Of a stretch of DNA of 52,052 nucleotides, positions 301-19,563 are shown piece after piece. The DNA is from an uncultured Prochlorococcus sp. GTDB lineage: Bacteria; Cyanobacteriota; Cyanobacteriia; PCC-6307; Cyanobiaceae. The DNA is taken from assembly GCA_902535185.1 (NCBI GenBank), contig CACAST010000004.1, positions 1 to 52,052 on the forward strand. Direction: 5' to 3'. Made by a program: the position numbers and the translations under genes. A model generated the notes under the pieces. That model had not been told where the DNA came from. It worked only from the letters and a program-made list of their open reading frames with translations, and did no database searches. Each line of letters opens with the position of its first letter. The first letter of the stretch is position 1.

Positions 301-310
301 TTCCTGTTGA

Positions 311-583
311 ACAGAATTTGATTTATTTGATAGACGTTTACTTATAACCAGAAGAAAAAATCGAAGGGCTAAAGAACTGGTTAAATCAAGAATTACTCAA
401 AATAAAAAATTAGAACAAGAAAAAATTATTTCCCCTTTTCGTAAAAAAGCTCTAATTGAACTTTCAAAAGGAACTAACTCCCAAGATAAAGCTTGGGCAT
501 TGCGAAATATTGCCATTCTTATGCTGAATGGTATTACATTCGATGGAATACAAATTAAAACTGAAAATGGAGTTAAAAACTAA
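311..583 (+). pseudogene. C-terminal gene fragment without a start, coupled to the SWIM gene
   Basis: A plus-strand frame is open from the stop at 308-310 to a TAA at 581-583, giving 90 codons. It has no usable ATG except one 20 codons from the end. The content looks coding: a basic stretch, then an ordered helix pair around KAWALRNIAILMLNG and a short polar tail. Its stop overlaps the next ATG (TAATG), the arrangement of translationally coupled operon genes, so it is probably the surviving 3' end of a former first gene of this operon. The opposing frame at 1-300 begins where this one loses its start, which suggests a rearrangement around 310-350. It could instead be a gene with a non-standard start. 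Confidence 0.45.
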
Positions 584-2226
584 TGATTTCTTTCAAAGGC
601 AACTTTACTCAATCAACTGTAAATTCAAATACTAATGAAAGTGCAGTTACTTTTGGTACTGATATTAAAAATTCAAATGTCTTCTTGAGTACAGATATAA
701 AAGTTAAACCAGGTGTTGCATTCTCAAAATTAATGCTGGTATTAGGAAGAATAGTAAGGATGAGAGATGCTGGAGTAAATAAAGATCACTCAGCTTATCA
801 GGAATGGGTTCAAGGCGAATACTTTAAAGAATTACCTGGTTTTATGAGTTCACAATTAAAACAGCTTCCTAAATTAATAAAAGAAAGAGAAATACTTACG
901 CAACAATTAGAATTTTATGATCAGATTATAAAAAAATTTAATTCAAATTATTTCCCCGAGCAAAGAAGGCGTTTTTGGAGTTGGCTTTATACACATAATA
1001 GAGATGCATGGTATGTTCTCGACCCAATAGTAAGTGTTCAGCCTGATGCGACATTTTTTGAGGCTTTTTCTCTAGATGAGTCAACTTATGCAAGAGTAGC
1101 TCTACCGCATGAGGCAACATCCGGTGAGAAAAACTTTAATTGTGGAACTACAAATATTGACTTTAGTACTTCTCTTGAAAGAGAACTTTCTAGAACTCGC
1201 TCATATCGACCACTGCATTTAACCGTTGGCAAAGATGCCGTAGAGTTTGATACTGGAATATCAAATACAATAGAGAAAAAAATTGATCTACCAGAAACTT
1301 GGACTAAGGGTTTGGTTGAGGTTCAGGCTGCCTTATCACTTGCACCTGTTGAAATTAATATTTCATCATTAGCACTTGCCGATGTACTAGGAAGATTAGA
1401 GGCCCAGCGAGAAAAGGAAGGACCAAGATCACTAATTTTTGAACTTATTCCAGATGAAAAACCAAAAGTAATTGTTGAACCTTGGGGGGACGTTTTCATA
1501 ATGTCTGATAAGCCTTTTAAGGGGGCAAAAAGCTCTAGAATTAAAGTATGGGGAAGAAGAAGGTTGAGAGTATTAAAAGAGATACTTCCTTTGGTAAATA
1601 ATGTGAATGTCAGATTAATCGATTCTGGAATGCCTTCATTCTGGAGTGTAGAGATGGAAGGAATTAAATTAATAATAGGACTTTCTGGATGGACTAGTTT
1701 AGATTGGGCGGCTAGGGCGCGTTTTTCAGCGATGATACCAGCTGCTGAAGAATCCAAAGAAACAATGGAAAAAGCTGCATATTTTTTAAAAACAAATTTA
1801 ATCATTGAAGATGGAGAACTTGCCAAATATTTAAATAAATCTCCAATGGAATCAAAAAGAATCCTTCAGCGTTTATGTTTATCTGGAACGGCAATGTATG
1901 ATCCTGAGTTTAGGAAATATCGTTATAGAGAACTTTTCCCTGATTTAGATTTCGAATCTAAATCTCAAACTGGTATTGAAGAAATTAAAGGCATTGAGTT
2001 ATTCAAAAGAAATGCAGTCAGAATTTCATCAGATAGTATTAATGAAAAAGAACGAACTATAAAAGCAACTGTTATTTCAAGAGAAAGGATCTGCTCTACT
2101 GTAATTAGTCGTGATATTGATAGTCGTATTACTCAAGCACAGTGTAGTTGTTCATATTTTAGATATCACAAGCTTAAACAAGGTCCTTGTAGACATATCG
2201 TTGCATTAAGTCTTGCTGGAGAATAA
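583..2226 (+). CDS. Winged-helix SWIM zinc-finger protein, probable retron partner
   Basis: This 547-residue protein ends in a SWIM zinc finger: C521 and C523, then C536 and H538 (CxC...CxH). SWIM fingers bind DNA or protein partners. Just before it, about residues 395-455, is a segment that reads as a winged helix (LAKYLNKSPMESKRILQRL, then a basic wing). The N-terminal 390 residues match no family I recognise. The ATG overlaps the preceding stop, and the RT gene starts one base after this stop, so the three frames form one operon. I recall proteins with this winged-helix-SWIM layout as accessory genes of one retron type (type XIII in a published scheme). The likely role is effector or nucleic-acid sensor in phage defence; that is inference. 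Confidence 0.7.
   Translation: MISFKGNFTQSTVNSNTNESAVTFGTDIKNSNVFLSTDIKVKPGVAFSKLMLVLGRIVRMRDAGVNKDHSAYQEWVQGEYFKELPGFMSSQLKQLPKLIKEREILTQQLEFYDQIIKKFNSNYFPEQRRRFWSWLYTHNRDAWYVLDPIVSVQPDATFFEAFSLDESTYARVALPHEATSGEKNFNCGTTNIDFSTSLERELSRTRSYRPLHLTVGKDAVEFDTGISNTIEKKIDLPETWTKGLVEVQAALSLAPVEINISSLALADVLGRLEAQREKEGPRSLIFELIPDEKPKVIVEPWGDVFIMSDKPFKGAKSSRIKVWGRRRLRVLKEILPLVNNVNVRLIDSGMPSFWSVEMEGIKLIIGLSGWTSLDWAARARFSAMIPAAEESKETMEKAAYFLKTNLIIEDGELAKYLNKSPMESKRILQRLCLSGTAMYDPEFRKYRYRELFPDLDFESKSQTGIEEIKGIELFKRNAVRISSDSINEKERTIKATVISRERICSTVISRDIDSRITQAQCSCSYFRYHKLKQGPCRHIVALSLAGE
2218..2221 (+). promoter_or_regulatory. Shine-Dalgarno site that sets the RT start
   Basis: GGAG lies inside the last codons of the SWIM gene, six bases before the ATG at 2228. 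This favours that ATG over the in-frame TTG at 2213, which has no comparable site. Confidence 0.7.
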
Positions 2227-2227
2227 T

Positions 2228-3622
2228 ATGAAAAATCAAGATACTAGTCTTAATCCAGAGTGGGCGAGAAGAATTAAGCAGGTTGGTATGCGAGCTTTTG
2301 AAGTTGAAGAAATGCTTCGTCTTGGATTCCTTGAGCCTAATGACTTAAATATTGAAGAGTTTGAAAAAGCAGCTTTAAATTTAAAGGATATAAGAAATAA
2401 GTTAGAAAAAACTAATATAGAAATTGAGTCATTAAATAATGTTGACATTGCGATTGATAAAATAAGATCTAAAAGAATTAAAGATGTAAAGATAAAAGCA
2501 GAACTTAGAAAAAATAATAAAGAAAAAGAAAAAACCAGAAGATTAGAAGAGAATAAAATTAATCGTATTAATTGCCCAAATTTTCTTGGAAGAGAAGTTT
2601 CCAATAGACTTAAATTTATTGGCGGAGACGAAGAATTAGTTAAAAGAAATGGGTTGCCAAAAATTATTTCTTTTCTTGATTTGTCTTCAGCTTTGGGATT
2701 AGATCCTAAAGATCTTCAATGGCTTGTTTATAGCAGAGAAGATTCTTCTGTAGATCACTACACACGTTTTTATATTCCTAAAAGATCTGGAGAAAAAAGA
2801 CTGATTTCTAGTCCAAAACCAATCCTTAGAAAAGCTCAAAGTTGGGTATTGAATGAAATTTTAGAAAAAATAAAATTACATCCAGCAGCTATGGCATTTA
2901 GGGTGGGAGTATCTATTCTAGATAATGCTTCATTGCATGTGAAAAAAGAAATAGTTTTACGTATAGATCTTAAAGACTTCTTTCCTTCGATAGTATTTCC
3001 CCGAGTCCGCGGTTTTTATGAATCACTGGGATATAATCCTGGAGTTGCTTCAGTTTTGGCATTACTTTGTACAGATAGTCCAAGAGTACTTTTGAAGCAA
3101 GATGATAAATCATATTTTGTTGAAGTAGGAGAAAGATGTTTACCCCAGGGGGCATGTACTTCTCCAAATCTTGCAAATTTAATATCAAATAATCTTGATA
3201 AGAGAATTTCTGCTTATGCAGAAAAATCTAAATGGATTTATTCAAGATATGCTGATGATCTTATCTTTTCAACTAAAGAAAAAATTAAAAATCCAAATGG
3301 TTTGATTAAGGGTATTTCTAAAATAATTTCAGATGAAGGATTTATAGTTAATCAAAAGAAAACACGCATAATGCGGAAGTCAAACAGGCAAATAGTTACC
3401 GGTTTATTAGTCAATGATGAAGTAAGGTTAACTAAAAGAGACTTACATCGTTTCAGAGCATTTTTTCATAATTGTAAAATTAATGGAATAGAAAAAGTTT
3501 CTACTGAAATCGGAAAAGATGCTATGTCAGTTGCAAAAGGTTATTTATCTTATGTAAATATAATTTCACCATCTACTGCAAATAAGTTTCTTAATTTAAA
3601 TCCTTGGTTATCAATTAATTAA
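2228..3622 (+). CDS. Retron-type reverse transcriptase
   Basis: This 464-residue RNA-directed DNA polymerase has a complete palm: RIDLKDFFPS with catalytic D247, CLPQGACTSPNLANL, and YADD at 341-344. Two features specific to retron RTs are present: NAxxH as NASLH (233-237) and VTG (390-392) in the C-terminal recognition region. Retron RTs prime on a structured RNA and make a small RNA-linked DNA; most studied retrons act in phage defence. The first 110 residues are a charged, partly coiled-coil extension longer than in compact retron RTs. It follows the SWIM gene by one base and is clearly co-translated. I see no obvious msr-msd RNA next to it. Group II intron (no maturase) and DGR (no repeat pair) origins fit less well. 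Confidence 0.88.
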   Translation: MKNQDTSLNPEWARRIKQVGMRAFEVEEMLRLGFLEPNDLNIEEFEKAALNLKDIRNKLEKTNIEIESLNNVDIAIDKIRSKRIKDVKIKAELRKNNKEKEKTRRLEENKINRINCPNFLGREVSNRLKFIGGDEELVKRNGLPKIISFLDLSSALGLDPKDLQWLVYSREDSSVDHYTRFYIPKRSGEKRLISSPKPILRKAQSWVLNEILEKIKLHPAAMAFRVGVSILDNASLHVKKEIVLRIDLKDFFPSIVFPRVRGFYESLGYNPGVASVLALLCTDSPRVLLKQDDKSYFVEVGERCLPQGACTSPNLANLISNNLDKRISAYAEKSKWIYSRYADDLIFSTKEKIKNPNGLIKGISKIISDEGFIVNQKKTRIMRKSNRQIVTGLLVNDEVRLTKRDLHRFRAFFHNCKINGIEKVSTEIGKDAMSVAKGYLSYVNIISPSTANKFLNLNPWLSIN

Positions 3623-5176: not shown

Positions 5177-6052
5177 CTATAAGGATAAATTTCTGAATCT
5201 TGTAAATTGAGGTTCAAAAAGTAATTTAACAGTACCAACAGGGCCATTTCTATGTTTACAAATAATTAGTTCAGATATTCCTCTATCAGTAGTTTCTGGA
5301 TTGTAGTATTCATCTCGGTAAAGCATTGCAATAAGATCTGAGGTGCCTTCAAGAGATTTAGTTTCTCTTATATCTCCCAACATTGGTCTTTTGTTGTATC
5401 TATATTCAATAGTTCTATTTAGCTGTGATGCTACAAAAATTGGGACATCTAATTCAACCGCCATAGATTTTAACTTTATTCCAATTTTGCAAAGTTCATC
5501 ATCTCTTGATGTTATTAATCTATTATCATCAATTTCCATTAATTGAATATAATCAATAACTATTAGTCCAAGTTTTTTATCTTTTGATTGTTCTTTAATC
5601 TCTTTACAAGTATTTGTCATTTCTTCAATTGAAATATTTTGTTTATCGAATATATAAATTGGCAATTGACTTAATGAGTTTATTCCTTCTCCTAGTAATG
5701 GCCATTCATCTTGTTGTAATCTTCCAGTTCTTAATCTACCGCTTTCAATTCCTACTTCTAGAGATAATATTCTATAACCTAATTGTTCCTTGCTCATTTC
5801 TAATCCAAAGTAGCAAACTGGGAGACTCTGAGATTGGGCAACATTTTTAGCCATATTAATCAATAAGGAAGTTTTACCCATAGAAGGTCTTGCACCTAAA
5901 ACATTTAAGCTGCCTCTTTGAAGGCCTTGTGTCATTGCATCAAAATCATAAAAGTTTACTGGTATTCCAGCTGTGCTTTCTCCCAATGATCTTTGTTCTA
6001 TCTGATTAAATAATTTATTTAAAATCGAATCAAACTTACTTTCTTTTTGCAT
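5177..6052 (-). CDS. DnaB-type helicase domain protein lacking the N-terminal domain
   Basis: These 291 residues cover only the RecA-like C-terminal half of replicative helicase DnaB (normally about 450 residues). Walker A is GARPSMGKTS (53-62, K60), Walker B is VIDYIQLM (165-172), motif H3 is ASQLNR (208-213), and the arginine-finger region is KHRNGPVG (266-273). The usual RESGxIEQDAD stretch is altered to RETKSLEGTSD (229-239). The N-terminal domain that binds primase and stabilises the hexamer is absent, and there is no intein. It sits among TPR genes, 59 bases after the TPR-sigma gene. It may be an ATPase motor recruited by TPR partners, or a phage- or plasmid-derived helicase. Fold certain; role unknown. 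Confidence 0.85.
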   Translation of the reverse strand: MQKESKFDSILNKLFNQIEQRSLGESTAGIPVNFYDFDAMTQGLQRGSLNVLGARPSMGKTSLLINMAKNVAQSQSLPVCYFGLEMSKEQLGYRILSLEVGIESGRLRTGRLQQDEWPLLGEGINSLSQLPIYIFDKQNISIEEMTNTCKEIKEQSKDKKLGLIVIDYIQLMEIDDNRLITSRDDELCKIGIKLKSMAVELDVPIFVASQLNRTIEYRYNKRPMLGDIRETKSLEGTSDLIAMLYRDEYYNPETTDRGISELIICKHRNGPVGTVKLLFEPQFTRFRNLSL

Positions 6053-6111: not shown

Positions 6112-6645
6112 TTATTTCTCCTCTAAATCTTTACTTTTTAGTATTTGATAAAGAGAATCTTCCAATATCAATTTTTTTGCAACTGATCTAAATTTTTTTA
6201 AAGCTACATTTTCTATTTGCCAAATTCTTTGGGTTGAAAGATTTAGTAATATGCCTATCTCTTTAAGAGTCTTATATTTGCCTGGAATTAATCGATATTT
6301 AAAAATAAATTTTTCTTTATAATTTAATTTTTCAAAACATGATTGGAATATTTTTAAAATTCTTTTATTTTCTAGTTCCTTTTTTTTTTCAGAAACTTCT
6401 GATTTAAGTATTTCAAAAATATTTGTTTTTTCATCCAGTTCTTTATATTTTTTGAAGTCCTCTAAAGCCTCTTTGTGCTTATTAAGTTTTGTTTTAGCTA
6501 CACCCCTAAGCCAATAGATCTCGTTTTGATAAGGGCAAATATTTATAGCTAGGGAATATAAAAGAATCGCTTTTTCATAATCATATTTGGAAATTTTATC
6601 CTTTGCTTTTTTTATATAAATAAATGGTATTTCATTGATATTCAT
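6112..6645 (-). CDS. TPR protein fused to a sigma-70 region 4 helix-turn-helix
   Basis: This 177-residue protein has two parts. Residues about 10-75 form TPR helices (YEKAILLYSLAINICP, then HKEALEDFKKYKELD). After a charged linker (81-97), residues 107-156 read like region 4 of sigma-70 factors: LNYKEKFIFKYRL, TLKEIGILLNLSTQRIWQIE and NVALKKFRS match the TLEEIG-SRERVRQIE-ALRKLR pattern that contacts the -35 element. Region 2, needed for core binding and -10 melting, is absent, so it is not a complete sigma factor. It may bind DNA or RNA polymerase under control of its TPR part. It starts nine bases after the preceding TPR gene ends, indicating one operon. The fusion is unusual to my knowledge. 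Confidence 0.75.
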   Translation of the reverse strand: MNINEIPFIYIKKAKDKISKYDYEKAILLYSLAINICPYQNEIYWLRGVAKTKLNKHKEALEDFKKYKELDEKTNIFEILKSEVSEKKKELENKRILKIFQSCFEKLNYKEKFIFKYRLIPGKYKTLKEIGILLNLSTQRIWQIENVALKKFRSVAKKLILEDSLYQILKSKDLEEK

Positions 6646-8480: not shown

Positions 8481-11400
8481 TTAATTCCAATTTATTGGGC
8501 CTGGATCACCATTTAATTGAAAACCTGCCCAATAATAAGGATGATTCCATGCTGCTGTTGAATGATTTCTAAATTCACTCTGTACATTAGATAAGGCTTC
8601 AGCTCTCCCTATACCTTTTATGATTTTCTTATAAAAACTTTCCATAAATTCTGCAGTTGCTTTGTCATCTACTTCCCAAAGAGAAAGTAAACTAGATCTA
8701 GCGCCAGCAACAGCAATTGCTCTTTTTAATCCATAAACCCCCTCTCCTGACTTAATAGATCCAAGACCGGATTCACAACCTGAAATAACAACTAATTCAG
8801 TATCTTCCCAATCTAGTCTTGAAACCTCAAGAGCAGTTAAATACCCATTATCTATAGCATCATCAAATTTATTATTAGCCCCTGCTAAAACAATTCCACT
8901 CCTTAGTAAGGGATTTTTATCTTGATCTTTTAAAAAGAATGAATGACTAGCAATATGAAGAATTTTAGGTTTTGGATTGTTTTTTACTGCCAAAGAAGTT
9001 GCTTCTTCTTTTGTTAAAAGCTTAGCTTTAATTAATTTTGCTATTGTATTTCCTTCTTTTTCGGTTGCAGGTAATTCTGCCCAGTCAGTTTTATTTAAAT
9101 CAATAGCTCTCTTTTGTCGATTTTTATCAAAATAAGATTCCTCATTTATTTTATTTGTAATCTTTTTCTTTAAAGTAAATTTAGGATTCGCAATCACAAG
9201 GGATGATTTATTTTGCTTCTTATTATTTTTGTAAATTTCAATTATTTCTCTTCCTGTAGTGACAAAATGAAGTTCAAATTTTTCTGAAAATAATTTATTG
9301 CTTTTTGGAGCATTCAAAGCTGCAAAGGCTACCCTATTTAGTTCGCCATCTGGGGAAATTATGATAGTCTTGTATTCTCTTATTATCTCTTCTAATGGAG
9401 AAATTATTATATTGCTTAAATCTCTCCAATATTCTTCTGCATTTGGATCAATACCTTCAGTAGCTAATAGAGAGTTCTTTATTTTTGAATCAATAATATC
9501 TGCGGAACCTAAATTTATCACTTCAATCTCCCCTGAAGGTTTAAGAATCATTGCTAAGTATTTTGGATTTTCATTTCTGATTTCATTAAGAATTCTGGGT
9601 TCATTTATGTTTACAGGGAAATATTTCTGGAATTCTATTAATAAAGAATCTTTTTCTAATAAAGAAGCAATCTCAGCAACTTCAACTGTATTAATTTCTA
9701 ATTCAGGTATTGCTTGATAAAGGTCTTTTTCTAGAGAGTTTCTTAATTGATAAAGATCTTTTGAATCATTACTTTTATTAGCTGCAATTTTTTGATTAAT
9801 ATTTTTTATCTCTTCTAAAATCATTTTTTGAGAACCAGGTAGAGAGGAAAGTTTAGATTGACGCTTTTCAATATCTTGCAGTATTCCTTGTCTGTTAATT
9901 CTTGAAAATAAAGCAAATTCTAATCCTTCTGGATTTTCTATTGCCCATGAAAATGAATATTGATAAGAACTTCCAAATGTACCAAATGAAGATACAAAAG
10001 AACTTCTTTTAGATAATGGTAAATAGGGTGCTTCTTTTTGTATTAATCTTATAGAGTTTTTGAATCCTTCTTTTAGAACTTCTTTCGCTTTAGAATCTTG
10101 GCCTTTTAAAATGTATAACCAACCAAGATTATTTAAAGTCATTGCAGTATTAGAATTTAAATTATTAAATGATTTTTCATTTATCTCTAAGAACTTTTTA
10201 TAAAAAATTTCTGCCTTTTTATATTCACCTTTTAATGTATATAACCAACCAAGATTATTAATTATGTTTGAGTTTTGAGGATGACTCTCCCCATAGTTTT
10301 GAGTTGTTATTTCAAGAGCATATAAGTTTAACTTTTCTGCTTCTTCGTAATATCCTAAACGCATGCCACAATATGCAAGACCAATCATATTTGCTGCAGT
10401 TGTTGGATGATCTCTTCCTAATAATTTTGAATTTATACTAAAGGCAGCAGAGTATATCTCTGAAGCTTTTTCATACTCTTTACCATAGCTGTATACTCCT
10501 CCAAGTACTTGTAAAACTGCCGCACTTTCTAAACTTTCTTCTCCTATAACTTGATCAAAAATTTTAAGACTATTATGTAAAATTTCTTTGGAATCTTTAT
10601 ATTGGCCTTGCTTCATTTTTAAAATTCCTAAATTAAGTAAACTACTAGCTACATCTGGATGATTTTCCCCAAGTAAACTTTTTCTTATCTCTAATCCTTT
10701 TAAAAGTAGTATTTCTGATTGATTATATAAATCTTGACTTTCATATAGAGCTCCCAAATTACTATATATTTGAGCAATTTGAAGGTCAATTTTTTTATTT
10801 TTTTCATAAATTCTTAGAGCTTTTAAAAAAAAACTCTCTGCCTCCTGAGTCGATCCTATGCTTTGATAGTAAGTAGCGAGATTGTTATAAGATATAGCAA
10901 TTTCTAAATTCTCTGAATTACCATTAATTTTATCTATCGCAAATAAATTTTTAATAAGTTCTTCTGCTTTTTTATTCTCACCCAACTTTAAATGGAGGAC
11001 AGCTAAATTATTCATTGCTGTAGCAGTCCTTTTATCTTTATAACCATATTTTTTTTTACTTATGGATATTAGTTTATTTAAAAGGGATTTTGCCTTATTA
11101 AATTTTCCGTTTTTAATATAAATATCGCTAAGACTGTTTAAAGCTATTATGGTTTCATCGTGATCTTTGCCTCTGTATTCTCTAGCAAGTAAATAATAGT
11201 TTTCAATTAATTTTTCAGCTTCTTTATAATCTCCTAATAAAACATATAATCTGCCAAGATCTCTATCAATTAATCCATAAAGTAATTTGGCATCATTTTT
11301 TGGTAAATAATTTGATGTAGAACTACTTGAAAAGATTTTTTCAAAAATTACTCTTGATGCGGGCTCAACTAAAGAAGAGGTAATTTTTTTTATATCTTTA

Positions 11401-11642
11401 TATATATTAATAGCCCCTTGATAGTTTCCTTTTTGTTCTTCAATTTTTGCTTTTTGTTTTAAATTCTTTACTTTCTTAAGAATTGTTTTTTTTGTTTTTG
11501 GAACAAGAAAACTTACTTTTTGATTAGTTTTAGAAGCTAATATAGGCTCAGTTAAATAAATTGGCTTTATTATTAAAGGCATCAAAAATAAAACTAATAT
11601 TTTTTTATTTATCTTTATCTTTTTAAAAACTTTACTAGCCAT
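8481..11642 (-). CDS. Exported TPR-CHAT protease-like protein
   Basis: This 1053-residue protein begins with a basic stretch and hydrophobic segment (ILVLFLMPLIIKPIYL), a signal peptide or anchor. Residues about 60-530 hold TPR units of the long kinesin-light-chain-like type (YYEEAEKLNLYALEITTQNY, YKKAEIFYKKFLEINEKSF). A helical linker leads to a C-terminal CHAT domain, a caspase/separase-related cysteine peptidase, with H900 in HIASHS and C956 in SGCESGLG, so the dyad looks intact. CHAT domains cleave protein partners; TPR regions usually select them. It is the first gene of the second minus-strand run and resembles the 1108-residue protein at 14752-18078. An exported CHAT protein would act outside the cytoplasm. 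The substrate is unknown. Confidence 0.85.
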   Translation of the reverse strand: MASKVFKKIKINKKILVLFLMPLIIKPIYLTEPILASKTNQKVSFLVPKTKKTILKKVKNLKQKAKIEEQKGNYQGAINIYKDIKKITSSLVEPASRVIFEKIFSSSSTSNYLPKNDAKLLYGLIDRDLGRLYVLLGDYKEAEKLIENYYLLAREYRGKDHDETIIALNSLSDIYIKNGKFNKAKSLLNKLISISKKKYGYKDKRTATAMNNLAVLHLKLGENKKAEELIKNLFAIDKINGNSENLEIAISYNNLATYYQSIGSTQEAESFFLKALRIYEKNKKIDLQIAQIYSNLGALYESQDLYNQSEILLLKGLEIRKSLLGENHPDVASSLLNLGILKMKQGQYKDSKEILHNSLKIFDQVIGEESLESAAVLQVLGGVYSYGKEYEKASEIYSAAFSINSKLLGRDHPTTAANMIGLAYCGMRLGYYEEAEKLNLYALEITTQNYGESHPQNSNIINNLGWLYTLKGEYKKAEIFYKKFLEINEKSFNNLNSNTAMTLNNLGWLYILKGQDSKAKEVLKEGFKNSIRLIQKEAPYLPLSKRSSFVSSFGTFGSSYQYSFSWAIENPEGLEFALFSRINRQGILQDIEKRQSKLSSLPGSQKMILEEIKNINQKIAANKSNDSKDLYQLRNSLEKDLYQAIPELEINTVEVAEIASLLEKDSLLIEFQKYFPVNINEPRILNEIRNENPKYLAMILKPSGEIEVINLGSADIIDSKIKNSLLATEGIDPNAEEYWRDLSNIIISPLEEIIREYKTIIISPDGELNRVAFAALNAPKSNKLFSEKFELHFVTTGREIIEIYKNNKKQNKSSLVIANPKFTLKKKITNKINEESYFDKNRQKRAIDLNKTDWAELPATEKEGNTIAKLIKAKLLTKEEATSLAVKNNPKPKILHIASHSFFLKDQDKNPLLRSGIVLAGANNKFDDAIDNGYLTALEVSRLDWEDTELVVISGCESGLGSIKSGEGVYGLKRAIAVAGARSSLLSLWEVDDKATAEFMESFYKKIIKGIGRAEALSNVQSEFRNHSTAAWNHPYYWAGFQLNGDPGPINWN

Positions 11643-11669: not shown

Positions 11670-11909
11670 ATGGGAACAGGATTTTTTGCAGGTATATTTT
11701 CAATAGTGGGACTTTGGCGGTATTGGGGGGAACCTGAGTGGAAATGGTTTTTAATATTAATAGTAATTAGTAAATTATTCACTGAAGCAGTAAGAAGTGA
11801 TTTTGAAAAAAATGGAATTGAATATTCGAATAAAAAATTAGCATTAGTTGCCCAAATACTACAGATATTTGTAATTATAAGAGGAGTTCAATCAATTTTC
11901 TTCGCTTAA
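11670..11909 (+). CDS. Small two-helix membrane protein
   Basis: This 79-residue protein has a hydrophobic N-terminal part rich in Trp and Gly (FFAGIFSIVGLWRYWG, then WKWFLILIVISKLF), a charged middle, and a second hydrophobic helix (LVAQILQIFVIIRGVQSIFF). It probably has two or three membrane passes. The family is not recognised. It is the only plus-strand gene within the minus-strand cluster and begins 27 bases from the start of the TPR-CHAT gene, so the two promoters must overlap or lie within each other. It faces the DUF1822 gene tail to tail with 19 bases between. Confidence 0.6.
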   Translation: MGTGFFAGIFSIVGLWRYWGEPEWKWFLILIVISKLFTEAVRSDFEKNGIEYSNKKLALVAQILQIFVIIRGVQSIFFA

Positions 11910-11928: not shown

Positions 11929-13128
11929 TTAAATTGACTCACATGCATTTAATTTGTCTAATTGTAATTTAGCTTTTTCTAACTCTTTTGTATCGGGTGC
12001 TTTTTTTGAAAATAATAAAGATATACCAAGATTTCTGTTTGACTTGATTTTTTTATTTATTGCTTTTATCCACTTTCTTTTATTATCTCCCAAAGTATCA
12101 ATAAAGTTATCAATATTAGTTAAAGGAATATTTTGATCTGTTTCTAGATTTATAACTAAATTGGAACCAAAAGGAGAGCCTTGAGGTCTTAATAATAACT
12201 TATATTTATCTTTAGTTTTTATAGGTTTGATTGGCCAATATATTGGACCATTTATTTTTTCTGTTGAAGAGGCTATTTTCTTCCAAACTATATTTTTATC
12301 TATTGATATTGATAACTCGTTCAATGGCTTTAATAAATATATTATTGGCTTATCAATATTTATTTTTGCGACTAGTTCATTATTATCATTTTTGTATGCA
12401 ATAGGAGTTAATAAACATACTGAATTTTTAGTAGAGCTACGTGTAAATGATTTAACTTCATAGTCCTTAGGTGTCAGAGAGGATAAATTTGCGACCAATT
12501 TTGGTTGTAAAATATTTGGCCCAAAAATAATTAAACCTGCAGTTCCTAACGCCGCAGTAACGCTTAATTTAATTTTTCTTGTTATTAGATCCCAATTTAC
12601 TACCTTTGGATTAATATCTAATTCAACTCTTGGGATTGTTTTAGTGTCAAGAAGTCTGATGTACCTCAGTAGTTTATCTATACCACCATTAAAATGGCTA
12701 ATAGGTATTGATATTTTATTACTTTTAATATCTCTTTTCTTAATTATTTTTATAAATTCTTGACTAGTAAGTAATCCTTTAAAGAAAACAATATTTAGAT
12801 CCTCTTCAACTTGTGCGGCTAAAAATAATTGTGGACCCTTTCCTTTTTCTTTACAGTTTTCTATATCAATCTCAACTTCATCAGCAAGCATTCCTGATGA
12901 GACAAGTTGGATATCAAACTTGTTTAATATTACTGGTCTTTTGATATTCAAAAGATCTAATTCAGGTCCCAAGGATAATTTTAATTTTTTTTCTTTGATT
13001 ATTTTTTTAAGACTCTCAATAATTAATTCTCGAATGGAAAATTGTTTTTCTGGATCTAGGAAAATAGCTTCATTAGAAATCTCTATTCCTTCTAAATAAT
13101 AATTATTTTGTGAAGAATTTTTGATCAT
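11929..13128 (-). CDS. DUF1822-family protein
   Basis: This 399-residue protein has the DUF1822 N-terminal pattern: a region around GMLADEVEIDIENC, then LFLAAQVEEDLNIVFFKGLL, then ISIPISHFNGGIDKLLRYIR and LLD. The family is cyanobacterial and of unknown function. A hydrophobic stretch at about 190-207 (AALGTAGLIIFGPNIL) may be a membrane segment, and the C-terminal half is beta-rich. Its ATG overlaps the sigma-like gene's TGA (ATGA), so the two are translated together. In other cyanobacteria I recall DUF1822 genes next to sigma-like proteins and CHAT proteins, which matches this neighbourhood. The assignment is from memory of the family pattern. Confidence 0.7.
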   Translation of the reverse strand: MIKNSSQNNYYLEGIEISNEAIFLDPEKQFSIRELIIESLKKIIKEKKLKLSLGPELDLLNIKRPVILNKFDIQLVSSGMLADEVEIDIENCKEKGKGPQLFLAAQVEEDLNIVFFKGLLTSQEFIKIIKKRDIKSNKISIPISHFNGGIDKLLRYIRLLDTKTIPRVELDINPKVVNWDLITRKIKLSVTAALGTAGLIIFGPNILQPKLVANLSSLTPKDYEVKSFTRSSTKNSVCLLTPIAYKNDNNELVAKINIDKPIIYLLKPLNELSISIDKNIVWKKIASSTEKINGPIYWPIKPIKTKDKYKLLLRPQGSPFGSNLVINLETDQNIPLTNIDNFIDTLGDNKRKWIKAINKKIKSNRNLGISLLFSKKAPDTKELEKAKLQLDKLNACESI

Positions 13129-14426
13129 TTTTTTATTTCCTCTCTTACAAATTGCCTTAATAAAGATATTTTCTCATCTGTTTGTTCAATTAATAAAAAA
13201 TTTTGCAAACCATCTACTAAATTATCTAATTTTTCTGGTGCTTCTTTGAAATTTATAAATTCTTTTAATTTAAGAATTTCTAAAGCTGTTTCTTGTGCAA
13301 TTTCCTCAGATATTCTCTTCTCGGGTATTAATTTGCTAACCCAAGCCTGCTTATGATTGCACTTTGAAGCTATTTCTCTTTGACTTAAACCTTTACTATA
13401 TAATTCCCAAGCAAGCTTTCTTGATGAATCCTTTACCCATTTATTTTTATCTTCATTTATAAATTTATGCACAATACAAATACCATTATTTTTAAGTAAA
13501 GTAATTACTTTGTTGGAAATTTCTGAGTCTGAATTTTCAATTTCATGGATTTCTTGTGATTTTATTTGAGACTCTTCTTCTTGAGAAAGTTGTCTTGCAG
13601 TATATGTACTAGAAATATATTGCCTTATAGCTTTGCTCATTAAAACTAAGGTATCTATATTATTTTGAGGTGGATCTAAGGAAATAAGAAAATTCCTATC
13701 TGGTTCCCATCCTGAAATCTTCCCATATTTTCTTTTAAAGTCTTTCTTAGCTTTTTTGTAATTAACTATATAAGATTCATATAATTTAATTATATATTTG
13801 CTATTAAATTTTCCTTCTCCACATCTTTCCCAAGAAGAAATAATTCTTTTTCTTGAACTATCTGCAATTAAAGACCAATGACTAAATAAAAGAATTCCAA
13901 AGTTTCTTAAATAAGATTTTAATTCATAATTCCCTTGAACTTTATTTTTTGCCCATGTAGATAAATTTGATAAATCTGGATTAAATTCAAATATAATTTC
14001 TGCTCCAAAAGGTTGAATTACTCCTTTTTGATGCATAGTATTTATGGTTTCCCAACAAAATAACTTTTTTATAAATCTTTTATTTTTTTCATTTCTTATT
14101 CTTAAAAATCTTTCGCCACCATCATTCAATGTCAAAATTAACATTTCTTGAAGCTCGATATCGTAATTTTCTGAGAAGTTATTATAAATGTGTTTAATTT
14201 TTTCAAGGATAGGTGTACTTACTCTGCATCTAAGAGCAAGTAAGGAATCTACCTTTTCTGGCTTTTCTTTTGATATAGTAAAAAGTTTTTTATCAAAAGA
14301 ATTTGTAAAGTAATCTTTATCTAAATTATATTCATTTAAGAATTCTTTATTAAAGTCTACTCTTTTTTTGCTGACCTTTGAGCTAAAAGAATCTAGAAAA
14401 TAAATTTCAGTATATACTTTGTCCAA
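13125..14426 (-). CDS. Cyanobacterial sigma-70-like regulatory protein
   Basis: This 433-residue protein starts at a TTG (14426); a stop lies six codons upstream and no ATG occurs in the first 90 codons. It resembles the divergent cyanobacterial sigma-like family: LRCRVSTPILEKI and LTLNDGGERFL, then FNPDLSNLSTWAKNKVQGN, LKSYLRNFGILLFSHWSLI, and a C-terminal helix-turn-helix SKGLSQREIASKCNHKQAWV near 348-366. These proteins look like degenerate sigma factors and probably tune transcription of linked genes. It is preceded by the repeat peptide (52 bases) and overlaps DUF1822 by four bases. The HTH is visible; sigma activity is an inference. Confidence 0.65.
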   Translation of the reverse strand: MDKVYTEIYFLDSFSSKVSKKRVDFNKEFLNEYNLDKDYFTNSFDKKLFTISKEKPEKVDSLLALRCRVSTPILEKIKHIYNNFSENYDIELQEMLILTLNDGGERFLRIRNEKNKRFIKKLFCWETINTMHQKGVIQPFGAEIIFEFNPDLSNLSTWAKNKVQGNYELKSYLRNFGILLFSHWSLIADSSRKRIISSWERCGEGKFNSKYIIKLYESYIVNYKKAKKDFKRKYGKISGWEPDRNFLISLDPPQNNIDTLVLMSKAIRQYISSTYTARQLSQEEESQIKSQEIHEIENSDSEISNKVITLLKNNGICIVHKFINEDKNKWVKDSSRKLAWELYSKGLSQREIASKCNHKQAWVSKLIPEKRISEEIAQETALEILKLKEFINFKEAPEKLDNLVDGLQNFLLIEQTDEKISLLRQFVREEIKK

Positions 14427-14478: not shown

Positions 14479-14691
14479 TTACCAAGAAATAGCCCCCTCG
14501 TTTATACCATCAGTCCAAGGATCATCATATTTGCCAATAGCACCCTCATTAATACCATCAGTCCAAGGATCATCATATTTGCCAATAGCACCCTCATTAA
14601 TACCATCAGTCCAAGGATCATCATATCCTGCATAGACTGGAGCGAAAAAAGAAGCACCAACTAAAAAAGTTGTGATAAAAGTTTTTTTCAT
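14479..14691 (-). CDS. Exported peptide of three tandem 16-residue repeats
   Basis: This 70-residue precursor has a typical signal peptide (MKKTFITTFLVGASFFAPVYA, with cleavage likely after AYA or nearby) followed by three repeats of YDDPWTDGINEGAI separated by GK. The last copy ends in SW. Almost nothing lies outside the repeats. Each unit is acidic with one Trp and a single Lys at the junction, so cleavage at that Lys could release equal peptides. It sits between an exported TPR-CHAT protein (60 bases upstream) and a sigma-like gene (52 bases downstream), and a zinc peptidase gene heads the same run. It could be a protease substrate, a signal-peptide precursor, or a small structural protein. 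No family recognised. Confidence 0.75.
   Translation of the reverse strand: MKKTFITTFLVGASFFAPVYAGYDDPWTDGINEGAIGKYDDPWTDGINEGAIGKYDDPWTDGINEGAISW
14489..14632 (-). repeat. Three tandem 48-bp repeats inside the exported-peptide gene
   Basis: Three in-frame units of exactly 48 bp begin at 14489, 14537 and 14585. The middle unit differs from its neighbours at only a few bases at the ends of the array. Such near identity implies recent duplication or ongoing homogenisation, so copy number may vary between strains. Confidence 0.9.
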
Positions 14692-14751: not shown

Positions 14752-17700
14752 TCACCATTTGATGGGTCTCCAATCACCACTTAATTGAAAGGCTGCCCAT
14801 ACATTTGGGTGCCGCCATGCTTTTATAGGATGATCTCTAAATTCTTTTTGTGTAAGAGCTAAAGCAATGTTTTTCCCTTTGCCATCTTTTAACTTTTCAT
14901 AAAAACTTTTCATGAAAGCTGCTGTTGATCTATCGTTTACTTCCCAAAGTGATAAAAGGCTTGATTTTCCTCCTGCCACAGTAATTGCCCTTTTTAATCC
15001 ATATACTCCTTCTCCAGATTTTATTTCACCTTGACCTGATTCACATCCTGATACAACTACTATTTCCGTACCAATCCAATCTAATTTTGTTATTTCTAAA
15101 GCAGTTAAATAACCGTCATCTTCAGCATTTAAATTAGGATTATTAGCTCCTGCAAGAACAATACCGCTTCTTAATAAATGATTTTCTCCATCTTTATTAT
15201 CTTTTAGAAAATATGAATGAGTCGCAAAGTGTAATAAATTTGGATTTGTTAAATTTTCTAAATTAGAGACAGATGCTTTTTCATTTGTGAATAATTTTCC
15301 ATCAGTAATATTTTTAATATCAATTCCTTCTTTAGCAGTTCCAGGTAATTCAATCCAATTCTTTGATAATGAATCTTTTGATCTTCTTTGTTTTAAATCA
15401 GATATTAATAAGTTATCCTTAATGTTTTTATTTTTTAAATTAAAATCTGGATTAGCGAAAATTAAGTTACTTTTATTTTTATTCTTAGAATTATATTTTA
15501 AATCAATTAGTTCTCTGCCAGTTGTTAAAAGTCTTAGATTAATTGAATCATTAATATAAATTTTAGACCTATCAAATTTCAATGCTGATATAGGCACTCT
15601 ATTTAATTCACTATCTAGGGAAACATACCATGTATTAAAATTTTTAGTATATTTTTCTATAGGTTTAATTATTAATTCTGCCACTTCTTGCCAAAGATCT
15701 ATTGCATCACTAAGACCTTCCTCAGATGCATTAAGTGCATTTTTAATTTTTTTATCTATTACTTTTGAAGATCCTAATTCAATACGATGAACTTTTTGGT
15801 TTGGTAAAAGAATAAAGGCTAAATATTGAGATTCACTTGTTTTTTTTAAATATGGTGCCTCCACCATATAAGGTTTATATTTTTGGTATTCAATTAATAT
15901 AGAATTTGAATTAAGCAATCCAGAAATCTTTTCAATATCAACGTATTTACTTTTAAAACTTGGCAAAATTTTATATATCTCTCTTTCTAATAATTCTTGT
16001 TCGTTCTCTAATTTTTTTAAAAGATCATTATCAAGCGAGATATTAGATTTTCTTCTTATTAGTTTATCAAGCTTTTTATAGAGTTCTTTACCTTTTTGAT
16101 TTGAAAGAGATTTAGATTGAAACCTTTCTATTTCTTGAAGCAAACCTTGCCTATTTAGTCTAGTTTCGAGAGCAATTCTATTTCCAAGATTTGTATCTTT
16201 TGATAAAGAAAAAACTGAATTAACTGCTCCACCAAAAGAATTAACAAATTTATGTCTATTGCTGCTTGGTATAAAAGGTGCTTCCTTTTTAATTAAATCT
16301 AATTGTATTTTAAAGGCTTTATTTGCATTTAAAATAAAATCTTTTTCTGAATTATTTGCTGCGTATGCAGTAGCTAAGTTGAAATAAGCATCTGATAAAA
16401 ACCTGCTTTTTGGAGAATTATTATCAATTCTTAATTGAACCTCTTTTTTAAAATAATCTATCGCCAAATTTACTTTTCCTTCTTCTAAAGCTAAAAAACC
16501 TAGGACACTATAGTTATCTGCCATAGCCATATATCTATAATTTTCTATATTTATTGCTAATGATTTTTCTGTAAATTCTTTTGCTTCTTTTAAATTTCCA
16601 ATTATATAGTTTATTCTCCCTATATCCTGAGTAATTAGCGCAATATGGTCAAAATGAATGTCCTTCCAGTTAGTAAAAACTTTATATACATCAAGATAAG
16701 TTTTTAGTATTTCTTTAAACTGTGATTTGTCATCTCCATTTCTTGCATTGTACTCTAGATTAAATGCTCTATCTCTTTTTGCGTATGCGGTCCTAAAGTG
16801 ATCTTTACCCCATACTTTTTCATAAATGCTTATTGCTTTTTGATAATAAAAATTTGATTTTTCATATCCTCCAATAAAAGTATATGCCTGAGCAACTGTA
16901 AGCATTTTATCAGCAGTTTCAATGTTATTTGCACCTCTTATTTCCTTGAGTATTTCAATTGCATCTAATGAATAATTAATAGCATCTTTATAAATTTGTT
17001 CTTGGAAACTTATATATGAAAGATTATCTAATATAGATGCTCTGGCTAATAAATTCTCATAATTTTTTTCAAGGTAAAAATTTTTTTTGAGGTATTTTTC
17101 TAATAATAATTTCGAATCTTCATAATCACCGTTTTTGTATAAGTCAGTTCCTAAGTTATTGGCAATATTTGTTGTTGGAAAATTATTTTTTAAAGAAATT
17201 TCAAGAATATTTCTGAATATTGGAATAGATTTATCCCAATTCCCCTCATCACCATAAACTAAAGCAAGATTATTAAGAGAATTAATAGTTTCTATATTAT
17301 TTCGACCTAACTTTTTTTCAAGAATTTTAATGGATCTTTTTAAAAATGGTTTTGCAGTTTTCAGTTTTCCTAGTTCCCAATAACCTAGTCCAATTAAATT
17401 TAAAGTAATACCTACTTCAGGATGATTTAAACCATATTTATCCTCTTTGATTTTTAAAATTCTTTTATCTATATCAATTGATTTGAGGAAATCTCCCTGA
17501 TCTGAATATATATCAGCTAATGTTTGCAGAGTATCTACAAATTCTATTTGTTTGTCTTTATAAATTTTTTCGTAAATTTTAATTGATCTTTTTATATTTT
17601 TTTCTGCAGCAGAATATTTGTTTACTTCCCAATTAGTAATAGATAAATTCTCATAAAAAATTCCATTATTTTCATTAAATTCCCCATTTAAGTTGGTATT

Positions 17701-18078
17701 TATATAAATAGCTTTTAAATAGTTTTCAATAGCAAGGTCTGGCTTATTCAATTCGGCATATGTAATTGCCAATTCATTTGTAGGATCTATTAAGTGCGAA
17801 CTCTCCGGACCAAAATTTTTTTTTACTTTATTAATATATTTTTTATATAATTCAGCTGATTCTTCAAATTTTCCTTTATCAAATAAAAATCTTGCTCTTT
17901 CTAAGATTTTAAAAGTAAGGTTATTGTAAGATAGAAAATTTTTTTTATCTAAATCAAAAAATAAAAAATTTTGTTTATTTAGGCCGTAAACTTTTGGAAT
18001 TGTAGAAATTAATAAAATATTAATTAGTAAAATTGATAATATTTTAAATTTTTTAACCTCTTTTATCACAATTTTCAA
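14752..18078 (-). CDS. Exported TPR-CHAT protease-like protein
   Basis: This 1108-residue protein, probably starting at TTG 18078 (GTG at 18069 is possible), has an N-terminal export segment (ILSILLINILLISTIP). A long TPR array spans about 45-580 (FEESAELYKKYINKVKKNF, PDLAIENYLKAIYINTNLNG, LKTAKPFLKRSIKILEKKLG). The C-terminal CHAT domain has H954 in HFATHS and C1012 in SGCESGQG, so the peptidase dyad is present. Its C-terminal third is strikingly similar to that of the other TPR-CHAT protein here (for example LLRSGIVLAGAN, GYLTALE, SGEGVYGLKRAI), so they are paralogues. The zinc-peptidase gene ends five bases upstream. It probably processes or senses an envelope protein; the adjacent repeat peptide is a candidate substrate (inference). 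Confidence 0.85.
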   Translation of the reverse strand: MKIVIKEVKKFKILSILLINILLISTIPKVYGLNKQNFLFFDLDKKNFLSYNNLTFKILERARFLFDKGKFEESAELYKKYINKVKKNFGPESSHLIDPTNELAITYAELNKPDLAIENYLKAIYINTNLNGEFNENNGIFYENLSITNWEVNKYSAAEKNIKRSIKIYEKIYKDKQIEFVDTLQTLADIYSDQGDFLKSIDIDKRILKIKEDKYGLNHPEVGITLNLIGLGYWELGKLKTAKPFLKRSIKILEKKLGRNNIETINSLNNLALVYGDEGNWDKSIPIFRNILEISLKNNFPTTNIANNLGTDLYKNGDYEDSKLLLEKYLKKNFYLEKNYENLLARASILDNLSYISFQEQIYKDAINYSLDAIEILKEIRGANNIETADKMLTVAQAYTFIGGYEKSNFYYQKAISIYEKVWGKDHFRTAYAKRDRAFNLEYNARNGDDKSQFKEILKTYLDVYKVFTNWKDIHFDHIALITQDIGRINYIIGNLKEAKEFTEKSLAINIENYRYMAMADNYSVLGFLALEEGKVNLAIDYFKKEVQLRIDNNSPKSRFLSDAYFNLATAYAANNSEKDFILNANKAFKIQLDLIKKEAPFIPSSNRHKFVNSFGGAVNSVFSLSKDTNLGNRIALETRLNRQGLLQEIERFQSKSLSNQKGKELYKKLDKLIRRKSNISLDNDLLKKLENEQELLEREIYKILPSFKSKYVDIEKISGLLNSNSILIEYQKYKPYMVEAPYLKKTSESQYLAFILLPNQKVHRIELGSSKVIDKKIKNALNASEEGLSDAIDLWQEVAELIIKPIEKYTKNFNTWYVSLDSELNRVPISALKFDRSKIYINDSINLRLLTTGRELIDLKYNSKNKNKSNLIFANPDFNLKNKNIKDNLLISDLKQRRSKDSLSKNWIELPGTAKEGIDIKNITDGKLFTNEKASVSNLENLTNPNLLHFATHSYFLKDNKDGENHLLRSGIVLAGANNPNLNAEDDGYLTALEITKLDWIGTEIVVVSGCESGQGEIKSGEGVYGLKRAITVAGGKSSLLSLWEVNDRSTAAFMKSFYEKLKDGKGKNIALALTQKEFRDHPIKAWRHPNVWAAFQLSGDWRPIKW

Positions 18079-18083
18079 TACAT

Positions 18084-18848
18084 CTAAAATTTATATTTTT
18101 CAATTTTATTAATTCCTTTTAAATTTATACCTAATAATCCTGCGGCATCTTTTTTATATGGAGAGTAATCAAGATCTATTTCTTTCCCTGAACCTCTTGT
18201 CTTTTTGAATGCTTTATAGAGTGGATCATTAATCTTCCCTTCAACTAATTTATTAATTGATTCAAAAGAGCAACTGGAGTCAACTCTTCCCATACCTGAT
18301 AAAAGTGCATAAGTTCTTTGGGCTCCAGTTCCATGAGTTTTGCTGCCAATTGCATATGCTGCAGAAGACATTTCAAGAATACCTTCTCTAGTGATTCCTA
18401 ATTCTTTGTTACCTCTATTTATAAAATATCCTGCAAGACAATCGGCTTGAAGTTCATGATTTGGGTTTTTCAGATCTACTCCCAGAGCATTTTGTAGAGC
18501 ATGAGCAAATTCATGAGAGATTACGTAAGCAATACTTGCATTGCCAAATACCTTAACAAAAGCTTCAAGTTCATTGGCATCTAAAATTATTGTATGATTA
18601 GGTTCACAATAATAGGAACCAGCAACGTCAATACCAGAGTTTGCTCCCTTGCAGCCTCCTCCATATAATTTAGTACCGCTTTGGACAGTTATAACTTGAG
18701 GCGCATACCAGTCTTTTAAATTTTTATCGCTTGTCCAGGTTTCGATAAGATAAACGGTTGTCTTATCAATTAAGTCCGAAATATTTGAAGCTCTTACCCT
18801 AGTAGGTAAAAAAAGTAGAAGAATTATAGTGAAAAAAAATTTAAGCAT
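18084..18848 (-). CDS. Secreted neutral zinc metallopeptidase (YpfJ-like)
   Basis: This protein of about 254 residues starts at the ATG at 18848 (a TTG lies two codons upstream). A signal peptide (FFFTIILLLFLPTRVRA) is followed by a zinc-peptidase core: SHEFAHALQ with HExxH at 112-116 and a downstream HELQADCLAGYF supplying the third ligand. The YYCEPNHTIILD segment and this order fit the putative neutral zinc metallopeptidase family (YpfJ type). It is the first gene of the minus-strand run leading into the TPR-CHAT gene and has a 131-base divergent spacer with the small exported gene on plus. It presumably acts in the periplasm. Substrates for this family are not established. Confidence 0.8.
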   Translation of the reverse strand: MLKFFFTIILLLFLPTRVRASNISDLIDKTTVYLIETWTSDKNLKDWYAPQVITVQSGTKLYGGGCKGANSGIDVAGSYYCEPNHTIILDANELEAFVKVFGNASIAYVISHEFAHALQNALGVDLKNPNHELQADCLAGYFINRGNKELGITREGILEMSSAAYAIGSKTHGTGAQRTYALLSGMGRVDSSCSFESINKLVEGKINDPLYKAFKKTRGSGKEIDLDYSPYKKDAAGLLGINLKGINKIEKYKF

Positions 18849-18979
18849 TTTCAATACTTTTTACTATATTTACTCTATTTAAATTTTCATGGGAATATAT
18901 TTTTGGAATCGCAACAATTTTTTAGGAACAAGAGGAAATTAGTTGGAGCCTTACACTCCTAAATTTAAAATTATTAACC

Positions 18980-19231
18980 ATGTTTAAACTTTCTAACCTT
19001 TCAAAAAACACTCTAATTAAAAAATTTCTTTTCTTAACCGCCTGTGCCCCTCTAATAGGTTTTGGAGGTAATGCATTCGCTGATGTATATGTAGATGGCT
19101 ACTACAGATCAAATGGATCATATGTAAGTCCTCACTATAGAAGTTCTCCTGACTCATCGATATCTAATAATTGGTCAACTTATGGAAATACAAATCCTTA
19201 CACTGGTGCGATGGGTTATAACAGATATTAA
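18980..19231 (+). CDS. Small exported protein with conserved YYRSNGSYVSPHYRSSPD motif
   Basis: This 83-residue protein has a signal peptide (FLFLTACAPLIGFGGNAFA) and a short mature part rich in Tyr, Ser and Asn: VDGYYRSNGSYVSPHYRSSP, then NNWSTYGNTNPYTG. I recognise this mature motif as a recurrent small exported domain in many bacteria, function unknown. The ATG at 18980 is the first possible start. A strong intrinsic terminator follows directly, so it is a single-gene unit. It lies at the right border of the accessory region, divergent from the zinc peptidase. Confidence 0.8.
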   Translation: MFKLSNLSKNTLIKKFLFLTACAPLIGFGGNAFADVYVDGYYRSNGSYVSPHYRSSPDSSISNNWSTYGNTNPYTGAMGYNRY

Positions 19232-19280: not shown

Positions 19281-19399
19281 GGAATCATTTTTTAATTCGA
19301 ACTAAGAATTATTAGTATTTAAATCAAAACTTTGACTAATTCTGAATAATTTCTTTTTGCGATAGTGGTAATCTCACTGATACCAAGCTATCCCGCGAG

Positions 19400-19471
<72 letters not shown>

Positions 19472-19481
19472 AATTTTAAAG

Positions 19482-19563
19482 TGGGCCGGGTTGGATTTGA
19501 ACCAACGTAGGCAGAGCCAGCGGATTTACAGTCCGCCCCCTTTAACCACTCGGGCACCGACCC
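19482..19563 (-). tRNA. tRNA-Tyr(GUA)
   Basis: An 82-base class II tRNA with a long variable arm; acceptor GGGTCGG pairs with CCGGCCC with one T-G pair, and the loop CTGTAAA carries anticodon GTA. It lies ten bases upstream of tRNA-Thr on the same strand, so the two are probably co-transcribed. Confidence 0.93.

What the first reader, a model, noticed from the sequence alone, without database searches (positions are those of the whole stretch)
14479..14691. Secreted precursor made of three near-identical 16-residue repeats with Lys between units
After the signal peptide nearly the whole protein is YDDPWTDGINEGAI three times joined by GK, at DNA level 48 bp units with almost no drift. Multi-copy layouts of this kind resemble processed peptide precursors. 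It sits between an exported CHAT gene and a sigma-like gene.
Basis: seen in the sequence. Interest (0 to 1): 0.75.

Follow-up and report, generated by a model that had tools for sequence, protein, structure and literature searches.

The report
Mobile secreted triple-repeat peptide gene, Prochlorococcus
A rare ocean cyanobacterial gene makes a probably exported protein built only of near-identical 16-residue units; its copy number and middle residues vary between strains and it lies in mobile-looking DNA at tRNA genes, but whether the units are cut apart is unknown.

Summary
Window 14479-14691(-) encodes 70 aa: a Sec-type signal peptide (by eye), one Gly, then three 16-residue units (YDDPWTDGINEGAI joined by GK, ending SW). 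Homologues are very rare: 4 of 266 genomes of the genus including this one, plus a decayed copy in another genus. Copy number is 3, 5 or (decayed) 2. One homologue has five units of YDDYSTPNINEGAIGS: same frame, different central five residues, Ser in place of the linker Lys. Over the 14 shared codons of nine units from three genes all six variable sites are synonymous, so the peptide sequence is under selection. The gene is tRNA-linked in every context seen: a ~34-kb tRNA-Thr island (G124; the window's contig ends inside it), beside a tRNA-Pro-like fragment, and twice in a tRNA-Cys cassette of conserved geometry whose other copies carry unrelated small genes. Best reading: an exported, acidic, probably unstructured multi-unit peptide spread as accessory cargo; intact multivalent action is slightly favoured over release of single units, because the proposed Lys cut site is not conserved. 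Neighbouring TPR-CHAT proteins keep a conserved His and Cys and remain an unproven, testable processing partner. No Pfam or NCBIfam match.

The parts
14479..14691 (-). 70-aa probably exported tandem-repeat protein (called REP here)
   Evidence: homologues; selection
14629..14691 (-). signal peptide, codons 1-21, by inspection (V-Y-A|G)
   Evidence: sequence; has amino-acid changes between window and AAA795-J16 while the mature part has none
14578..14625 (-). unit 1, YDDPWTDGINEGAIGK
14530..14577 (-). unit 2, YDDPWTDGINEGAIGK
14482..14529 (-). unit 3, YDDPWTDGINEGAISW (terminal SW)
14752..18078 (-). TPR-CHAT protein with N-terminal signal-like stretch (by eye), directly upstream on the same strand
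   Evidence: CHAT 4.3e-58; His and Cys invariant in four aligned CHATs
18084..18854 (-). Zn metallopeptidase-like protein, 5 bp before the TPR-CHAT gene
   Evidence: PF04228 6.5e-12; NCBIfam match 4.2e-15 but far below its cut-off
13125..14426 (-). putative HTH regulator; TTG start as listed
   Evidence: all weak
11929..13128 (-). 399-aa protein of unknown family, overlaps the regulator gene by 4 bp
   Evidence: no family
8481..11642 (-). second TPR-CHAT protein
   Evidence: (CHAT 1.6e-69)
19399..19563 (-). tRNA-Thr and tRNA-Tyr at the right boundary of the island; a 96-bp, 98% copy of the tRNA-Thr block closes the island at its other end in G124

Best explanation
REP is an accessory gene of tRNA-linked, probably mobile DNA in Prochlorococcus. 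Its product is exported by the Sec route, loses its signal peptide at A|GYDD, and leaves a 49-residue, strongly acidic chain made only of 16-residue units. I think it most likely acts outside the cytoplasm as an intact, flexible, multivalent chain: each unit shows the same ligand (YDD-xxTxx-INEG), copy number sets the valency, and the central five residues set the type. Shown: the layout, homologues with other copy numbers and another centre, protein-level selection on the units, tRNA-linked contexts. Inferred: export (signal by eye), lack of fold (low-confidence model), mobility, intact rather than cleaved action, and what is bound.
For: Mature chain is one Gly plus n x 16 with n = 3, 3, 3, 5, and 2 in a decayed copy. 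Nine units of three genes, first 14 codons each: six variable sites, all synonymous (chance 6e-5 to 2e-4 under random substitution, sites taken as independent); window against AAA795-J16: 0 of 9 changed codons of the mature part alter the residue, 4 of 8 in the signal peptide do, Fisher p 0.029. pI 4.05, charge about -10 for 3 units and -15 for 5. The Lys is not conserved: GS in the 5-copy homologue. In G181 REP is the only ORF of 60 aa or more wholly between two tRNA-Cys 3' repeats 813 bp apart. The terminal unit differs from the rest (SW or SWSW), as a cap would. AlphaFold gives no fold for the 5-copy homologue: mean pLDDT 39, 4 sequences.
Against: Identical units with synonymous-only drift fit released peptides equally well. 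A 4-sequence alignment makes the disorder verdict weak. No binding partner, expression or location data exist. In the window, G124 and AAA795-J16 the gene lies next to a protease-family gene or its remnant, which an intact-chain model does not need.
Confidence: 0.45

Rival explanations
1. Multi-copy peptide precursor: after export, a protease cuts between units and releases 14-16-residue peptides that act as a signal or as a weapon, with type given by the central five residues. A form of this makes the neighbouring TPR-CHAT (caspase-like) protein the cutter at GK|Y.
For: Identical units under protein-level selection; variable copy number and variable centre in a fixed frame. A TPR-CHAT gene lies directly upstream in the window and in G124; a 30-aa CHAT tail remnant lies directly upstream in AAA795-J16, with an intact CHAT gene in the same island. 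CHAT is found in only 20 of 151 genomes of the genus but in 3 of 3 genomes with an intact GK-type gene; it was not found in the genome with the decayed GK gene or in the one with the GS gene. A His and a Cys are invariant in four aligned CHATs.
Against: Linker Lys not conserved; the last unit would differ from the others; the 3 carriers are two linked island types sharing one homologous CHAT-REP junction (82% over 374 bp), so the CHAT link is one event; G181 is only 58% complete. Three Craspase orthologues cut their natural substrate at three different sites, L|D, M|K and A|S (PMC11106740, passages), so a Lys need not mean anything for a TPR-CHAT.
Confidence: 0.3
2. Calcium- or metal-binding repeat or self-assembling (amyloid or solenoid) repeat that becomes ordered outside the cell.
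For: Acidic Asp/Glu-rich units at a fixed 16-residue period; D-x-x-x-D-G-I-x-E in the GK type recalls Ca-binding loops (recalled, no call).
Against: No Pfam or NCBIfam match at E 0.1; no PDB sequence match better than E 0.14; the DG is PN in the 5-copy type; no confident fold.
Confidence: 0.12
3. No function: a tandem duplication carried along by mobile DNA.
For: Rare and accessory; one copy has decayed (stop at codon 4, terminal Trp lost).
Against: Synonymous-only variation in nine units, and the same unit frame kept between two types.
Confidence: 0.05

Closest known systems
Kex2-processed repeat proteins (KEPs) of fungi, including alpha-mating factor and ustiloxin precursors (PMC7329392, abstract and section list seen)
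   Same: Signal peptide plus highly repeated short units in one small secreted precursor.
   Different: Bacterial; no dibasic sites; linker residue not conserved; no processing shown.
Multi-core RiPP precursors such as graspetides (PMC8939145, search listing and start of abstract only)
   Same: Several copies of a short core in one small gene (multi-core layout recalled).
   Different: Sec-type signal instead of a leader for a modifying enzyme; no such enzyme among the Pfam-scanned neighbours.
TPR-CHAT with its substrate Csx30 (Craspase; PMC9729208 and PMC11106740, passages)
   Same: TPR-CHAT protein with conserved His and Cys beside a small candidate substrate gene.
   Different: Both island CHATs look exported (by eye); no CRISPR effector among the Pfam-scanned neighbours; no cleavage evidence; REP was not compared with Csx30.
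Tycheposons and tRNA islands of Prochlorococcus (definition read in PMC10872708, passages; the original paper is not held)
   Same: Cargo between a tRNA gene and a copy of its 3' part; a tyrosine recombinase beside the tRNA-Cys copy in G498.
   Different: The tRNA-Cys cassettes are about 0.7-3 kb, below the 4-200 kb quoted there, and no recombinase was recognised in those read.

Membership tests
Kex2-processed repeat protein | signal peptide | tested here: inconclusive
   By inspection only; no predictor on hand.
Kex2-processed repeat protein | tandem repeat of a short unit | tested here: met
Kex2-processed repeat protein | basic (Kex2) cleavage site between units | tested here: not met
   single Lys in one type, Ser in the other
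Multi-core RiPP precursor | modifying enzyme encoded nearby | tested here: not met
   None among the 14 island proteins scanned with Pfam or in the 813-bp cassette; the 399-aa and 433-aa proteins stay unassigned, so a new kind of enzyme is not excluded.
Calcium-binding repeat protein (EF-hand, RTX and the like) | match to a family profile | tested here: not met
   0 families at E 0.1
TPR-CHAT substrate | catalytic His-Cys dyad in the neighbouring CHAT | tested here: inconclusive
   His and Cys invariant in four aligned CHATs where the dyad is expected from recall; not aligned with a solved CHAT, since the PDB search found none. Dyad described in PMC9729208.
TPR-CHAT substrate | cleavage by that CHAT | not testable with these tools
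   needs purified proteins
Tycheposon | bounded by a tRNA gene and a copy of it | tested here: met
   tRNA-Thr block of 96 bp repeated in G124, 63 bp in G018
Tycheposon | tyrosine recombinase in the element | tested here: not met
   no tblastn match at E 0.1 to four recombinases in seven stretches that cover the G124 island and the held G018 parts, and no motif hit in the five of these that were motif-scanned; divergent ones not excluded

The most novel reading that the evidence does not exclude
A bacterial counterpart of fungal repeat-peptide precursors: a type-specific peptide signal or bacteriocin made as exported tandem units, cut out by an exported TPR-CHAT caspase-like protease, with the central five residues as the specificity code, traded between Prochlorococcus populations on single-gene tRNA-Cys cassettes.
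Probability: 0.1. Interest if true: 0.85.

Novelty: new variant of a known kind. Interest (0 to 1): 0.5.

Why it matters
If the units are released, this would be a Sec-exported multi-copy peptide precursor in a bacterium, and in the most abundant phototroph of the ocean; I know of no such peptide signal there (own knowledge). If they act intact, it is a minimal repeat protein under strong selection that mobile DNA keeps spreading. The tRNA-Cys cassettes that carry it look like a small non-autonomous gene-capture system worth study on its own.

Tried and rejected
Wider homologues: viral contigs with the protein, the 5-copy homologue and alignment A2 gave none; phages 3 records and plasmids 1 record, best E 0.3, taken as chance. 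In the family search 19 of 400 genomes matched at E 10; the window's own and G498 are real, 17 were dropped (E 0.003 to 3.4): one search printed their frames where these held certain motifs and showed no such repeat unit, and for a few (L028, L031, L032) no frame with the motifs was printed at all. G012 and G209 are one 198-aa protein family without repeats. The mature-only profile matched 74 of 266 genomes at E 1; 70 genomes have a row at the same profile positions 30-47 (E 0.008-0.09), and the 16 that I read are one small secreted-looking protein with a single similar stretch (AIGKRDSYWADDSKEGSI), taken as chance or a very distant lead. PHROGs gave short weak matches: phrog_4709 E 0.011 to 17 residues of the window protein; for the 5-copy homologue phrog_15033 E 4.7e-5 over 20 residues, phrog_16497 (excisionase) E 0.002 and two more, with no single stretch passing the limit; the repeats add up scores, all but the excisionase have unknown function, and I did not follow them. 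A scan of 784 ORFs in 98 held sequences for tandem-repeat proteins found, besides REP, only one Ser-rich frame at 0.62 self-match. Promoter scan not above shuffles, 3 against a mean of 2.1.

A calcium-loop reading was dropped as the main one because the DG is not conserved. A structure for REP was tried with 4 sequences and gave no confident model.

Full report
What is there. Window 14479-14691 on the minus strand is an ATG-started 70-residue frame. After a signal-peptide-like start it is one Gly and three units of 16 residues. Two inner linkers are GK and the chain ends in SW. The array scores 257 in Tandem Repeats Finder, against 65 for the next best of 9 rows in the window, and 2000 codon shuffles do not reach its self-match. 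The window is one whole contig of a genome of 1.02 Mb in 62 contigs, 64.7% complete; the name Prochlorococcus rests on the named relatives.

Relatives. With the protein, 6 of 266 genomes of the genus match at E 10; four are real (this one, G124, G018, G181) and two are unrelated. A mature-only profile finds the same four and no further repeat gene among those read. A profile over 400 genomes of the family gave the window's own and G498 as real; G018, G124 and G181 are not among its matches and seem not to have been drawn. In the genus of G498, 1 of 41 genomes has it, G498 itself. Viral, phage and plasmid collections have none that I accept. PHROGs gives only short, weak matches.

How the relatives differ. 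G124 and the window have identical proteins; AAA795-J16 differs at four signal-peptide residues only. G181 has 102 residues: five units of YDDYSTPNINEGAIGS, the last ending INEGSWSW. AG-402-I20 keeps two diverged units but has a stop at codon 4 and has lost the final Trp codon. Kept in the three intact types are G-Y-D-D, Thr in the centre and I-N-E-G; variable are the centre (PWTDG or YSTPN), the linker (GK or GS) and the number of units.

Selection. In the first 14 codons of the nine units of the window, G124 and AAA795-J16 six sites vary, all at third positions and all synonymous; with 20-25% of random substitutions synonymous, six of six has a chance of 6e-5 to 2e-4 (sites treated as independent). 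Between the window and AAA795-J16 the mature part has 0 amino-acid and 9 synonymous codon changes, the signal peptide 4 and 4. In these genes copies inside one gene differ by 0-4 synonymous sites and copies of different genes by 0-5, so equality of the units seems held at the protein level and not only by recent duplication.

Surroundings in the window. All on the minus strand: Zn-metallopeptidase-like gene, TPR-CHAT gene, REP, a putative HTH regulator, a 399-aa unknown, and a second TPR-CHAT gene; a 79-aa frame of unknown kind (11670-11909) lies on the plus strand between the last two. G124 is colinear at 99% DNA identity over 17.0 kb. In G124 a 96-bp copy of the tRNA-Thr block lies at about C2:107.5 kb and the intact one near 141.3 kb, an island of about 34 kb. 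In AAA795-J16 the series peptidase - CHAT - DnaB-like - regulator - unknown - CHAT exists (CHATs 33-38%, the others 47-63% identical in protein), without REP between CHAT and regulator; REP sits elsewhere in the same island behind a 30-residue CHAT tail, and a tRNA-Pro-like 3' fragment follows about 60 bp downstream (tRNA type judged by eye; ARAGORN and Rfam do not call it). So the CHAT-REP junction is probably one ancestral junction (82% over 374 bp), and REP outlived its CHAT there.

tRNA-Cys cassettes. In G181 REP lies between the 3' end of tRNA-Cys and a 33-nt, 91% copy of it, 813 bp apart, flanked inside by a doubled 11-bp motif GGTAGGAAA(G/C)T. The doubled motif occurs in 6 of 264 genomes of the genus, with none for the reversed control, and with up to one mismatch in 3 of 41 genomes of the other genus, control again none; none in viral contigs. 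In all 9 genomes its left copy stands 109-111 bp inside a tRNA-Cys 3' end. Seven genomes show a right end: the distance to a tRNA-Cys copy is 78-80 bp in the 5 where one search found one; in G257 the stretch was cut there and one search shows the copy; in G572 no copy was found within the held DNA. A single inverted motif precedes the right motif in 6 of the 7, not in G560. G498 has no right end by this test and G059 runs off its contig. Cargo differs: REP (G181; decayed in G498), a 127-aa TPR protein (G086), proteins with weak, sub-cut-off zinc-ribbon matches (G020, G105), an Mrr-type restriction endonuclease (G572, E 4e-27), several ORFs (G257, only its right part read), no clear gene (G560). 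No recombinase was recognised inside those read. In G498 a 465-aa protein stands just left of the tRNA-Cys copy; Pfam and PHROGs do not name it at E 0.01, but Arg290, Lys318, Arg397 and Tyr435 are invariant in six aligned sequences, itself included and two partial (the catalytic motif is recalled), and its model matches XerA and Tn1549 integrase best (E 7e-5 and 1e-4, TM-scores low at 0.27-0.49, 4 matches at E 0.001 or better). Relatives of it are in 4 of 41 and 3 of 151 genomes. I infer that such recombinases move the cassettes in trans; this is not shown.

The CHAT question. CHAT is in 20 of 151 genomes of the genus, and in 3 of 5 REP carriers: all three with an intact GK-type gene, not in G498 (92% complete, gene decayed) and not in G181 (58% complete, GS type). 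This is suggestive only, since the three come from related islands. Four aligned CHATs keep a His and a Cys at the places where I expect the catalytic dyad described for TPR-CHAT (PMC9729208, passages); no solved CHAT was found to align with.

Verdict. A real, selected, very rare gene in mobile-looking DNA for a probably exported repeat peptide. Whether units are released is open; the Lys argument for it fails in the second type. I hold intact multivalent action at 0.45, release at 0.30, a metal-binding or assembling repeat at 0.12, no function at 0.05. Papers: searches for 'Prochlorococcus' with 'tandem repeat' and 'signal peptide', 'CHAT domain' with 'Prochlorococcus' and repeat-precursor terms listed none that I recognised, from titles and abstract starts, as describing this gene; the same holds for cassette terms. 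Most subscription papers are not in that library.

Noticed in passing
L011 9741-10586; L083, L084, L085, L086, L087, L010 7667-8117, L098, L100: A family of small tRNA-Cys cassettes (about 0.7-3 kb) with fixed end geometry, doubled 11-bp motifs and no recombinase recognised inside, in 9 of 305 genomes searched in two genera, mostly with different cargo. May be a non-autonomous gene-capture element; the searches listed no paper that I recognised as describing it.
   Followed up: partly
window 583-3622: Adjacent SWIM and reverse transcriptase genes match the PADLOC models SWIM_XIII (1e-151) and RT_XIII (2e-141), which I read as a type XIII retron in the island; in G124 a 926-aa ORF precedes them.
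   Followed up: partly
window 1-320: The first 320 bases are inverted relative to the otherwise colinear G124 contig, perhaps a contig-end chimera.
   Followed up: no
L010 6058-7455: Divergent tyrosine recombinase not named by Pfam or PHROGs but with recombinase-like fold and invariant candidate catalytic residues, beside a tRNA-Cys copy.
   Followed up: partly
L020, L037-L051, about position 1500: A small secreted-looking protein has one stretch resembling a REP unit, 10 of 18 residues alike by eye; 70 of 266 genomes show a row at these profile positions, E 0.008-0.09, and 16 were read. Probably chance.
   Followed up: no
window 18980-19231: Small 83-aa secreted-looking protein matching phrog_29674 (2e-15) sits between the tRNAs and the peptidase gene on the other strand; 98% identical in G124 and 54% in G018.
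   Followed up: no
window 5177-6052 and 6112-6645: A DnaB C-terminal helicase domain alone (5e-85) and a sigma region-4 plus TPR protein (4e-7) in the island.
   Followed up: no
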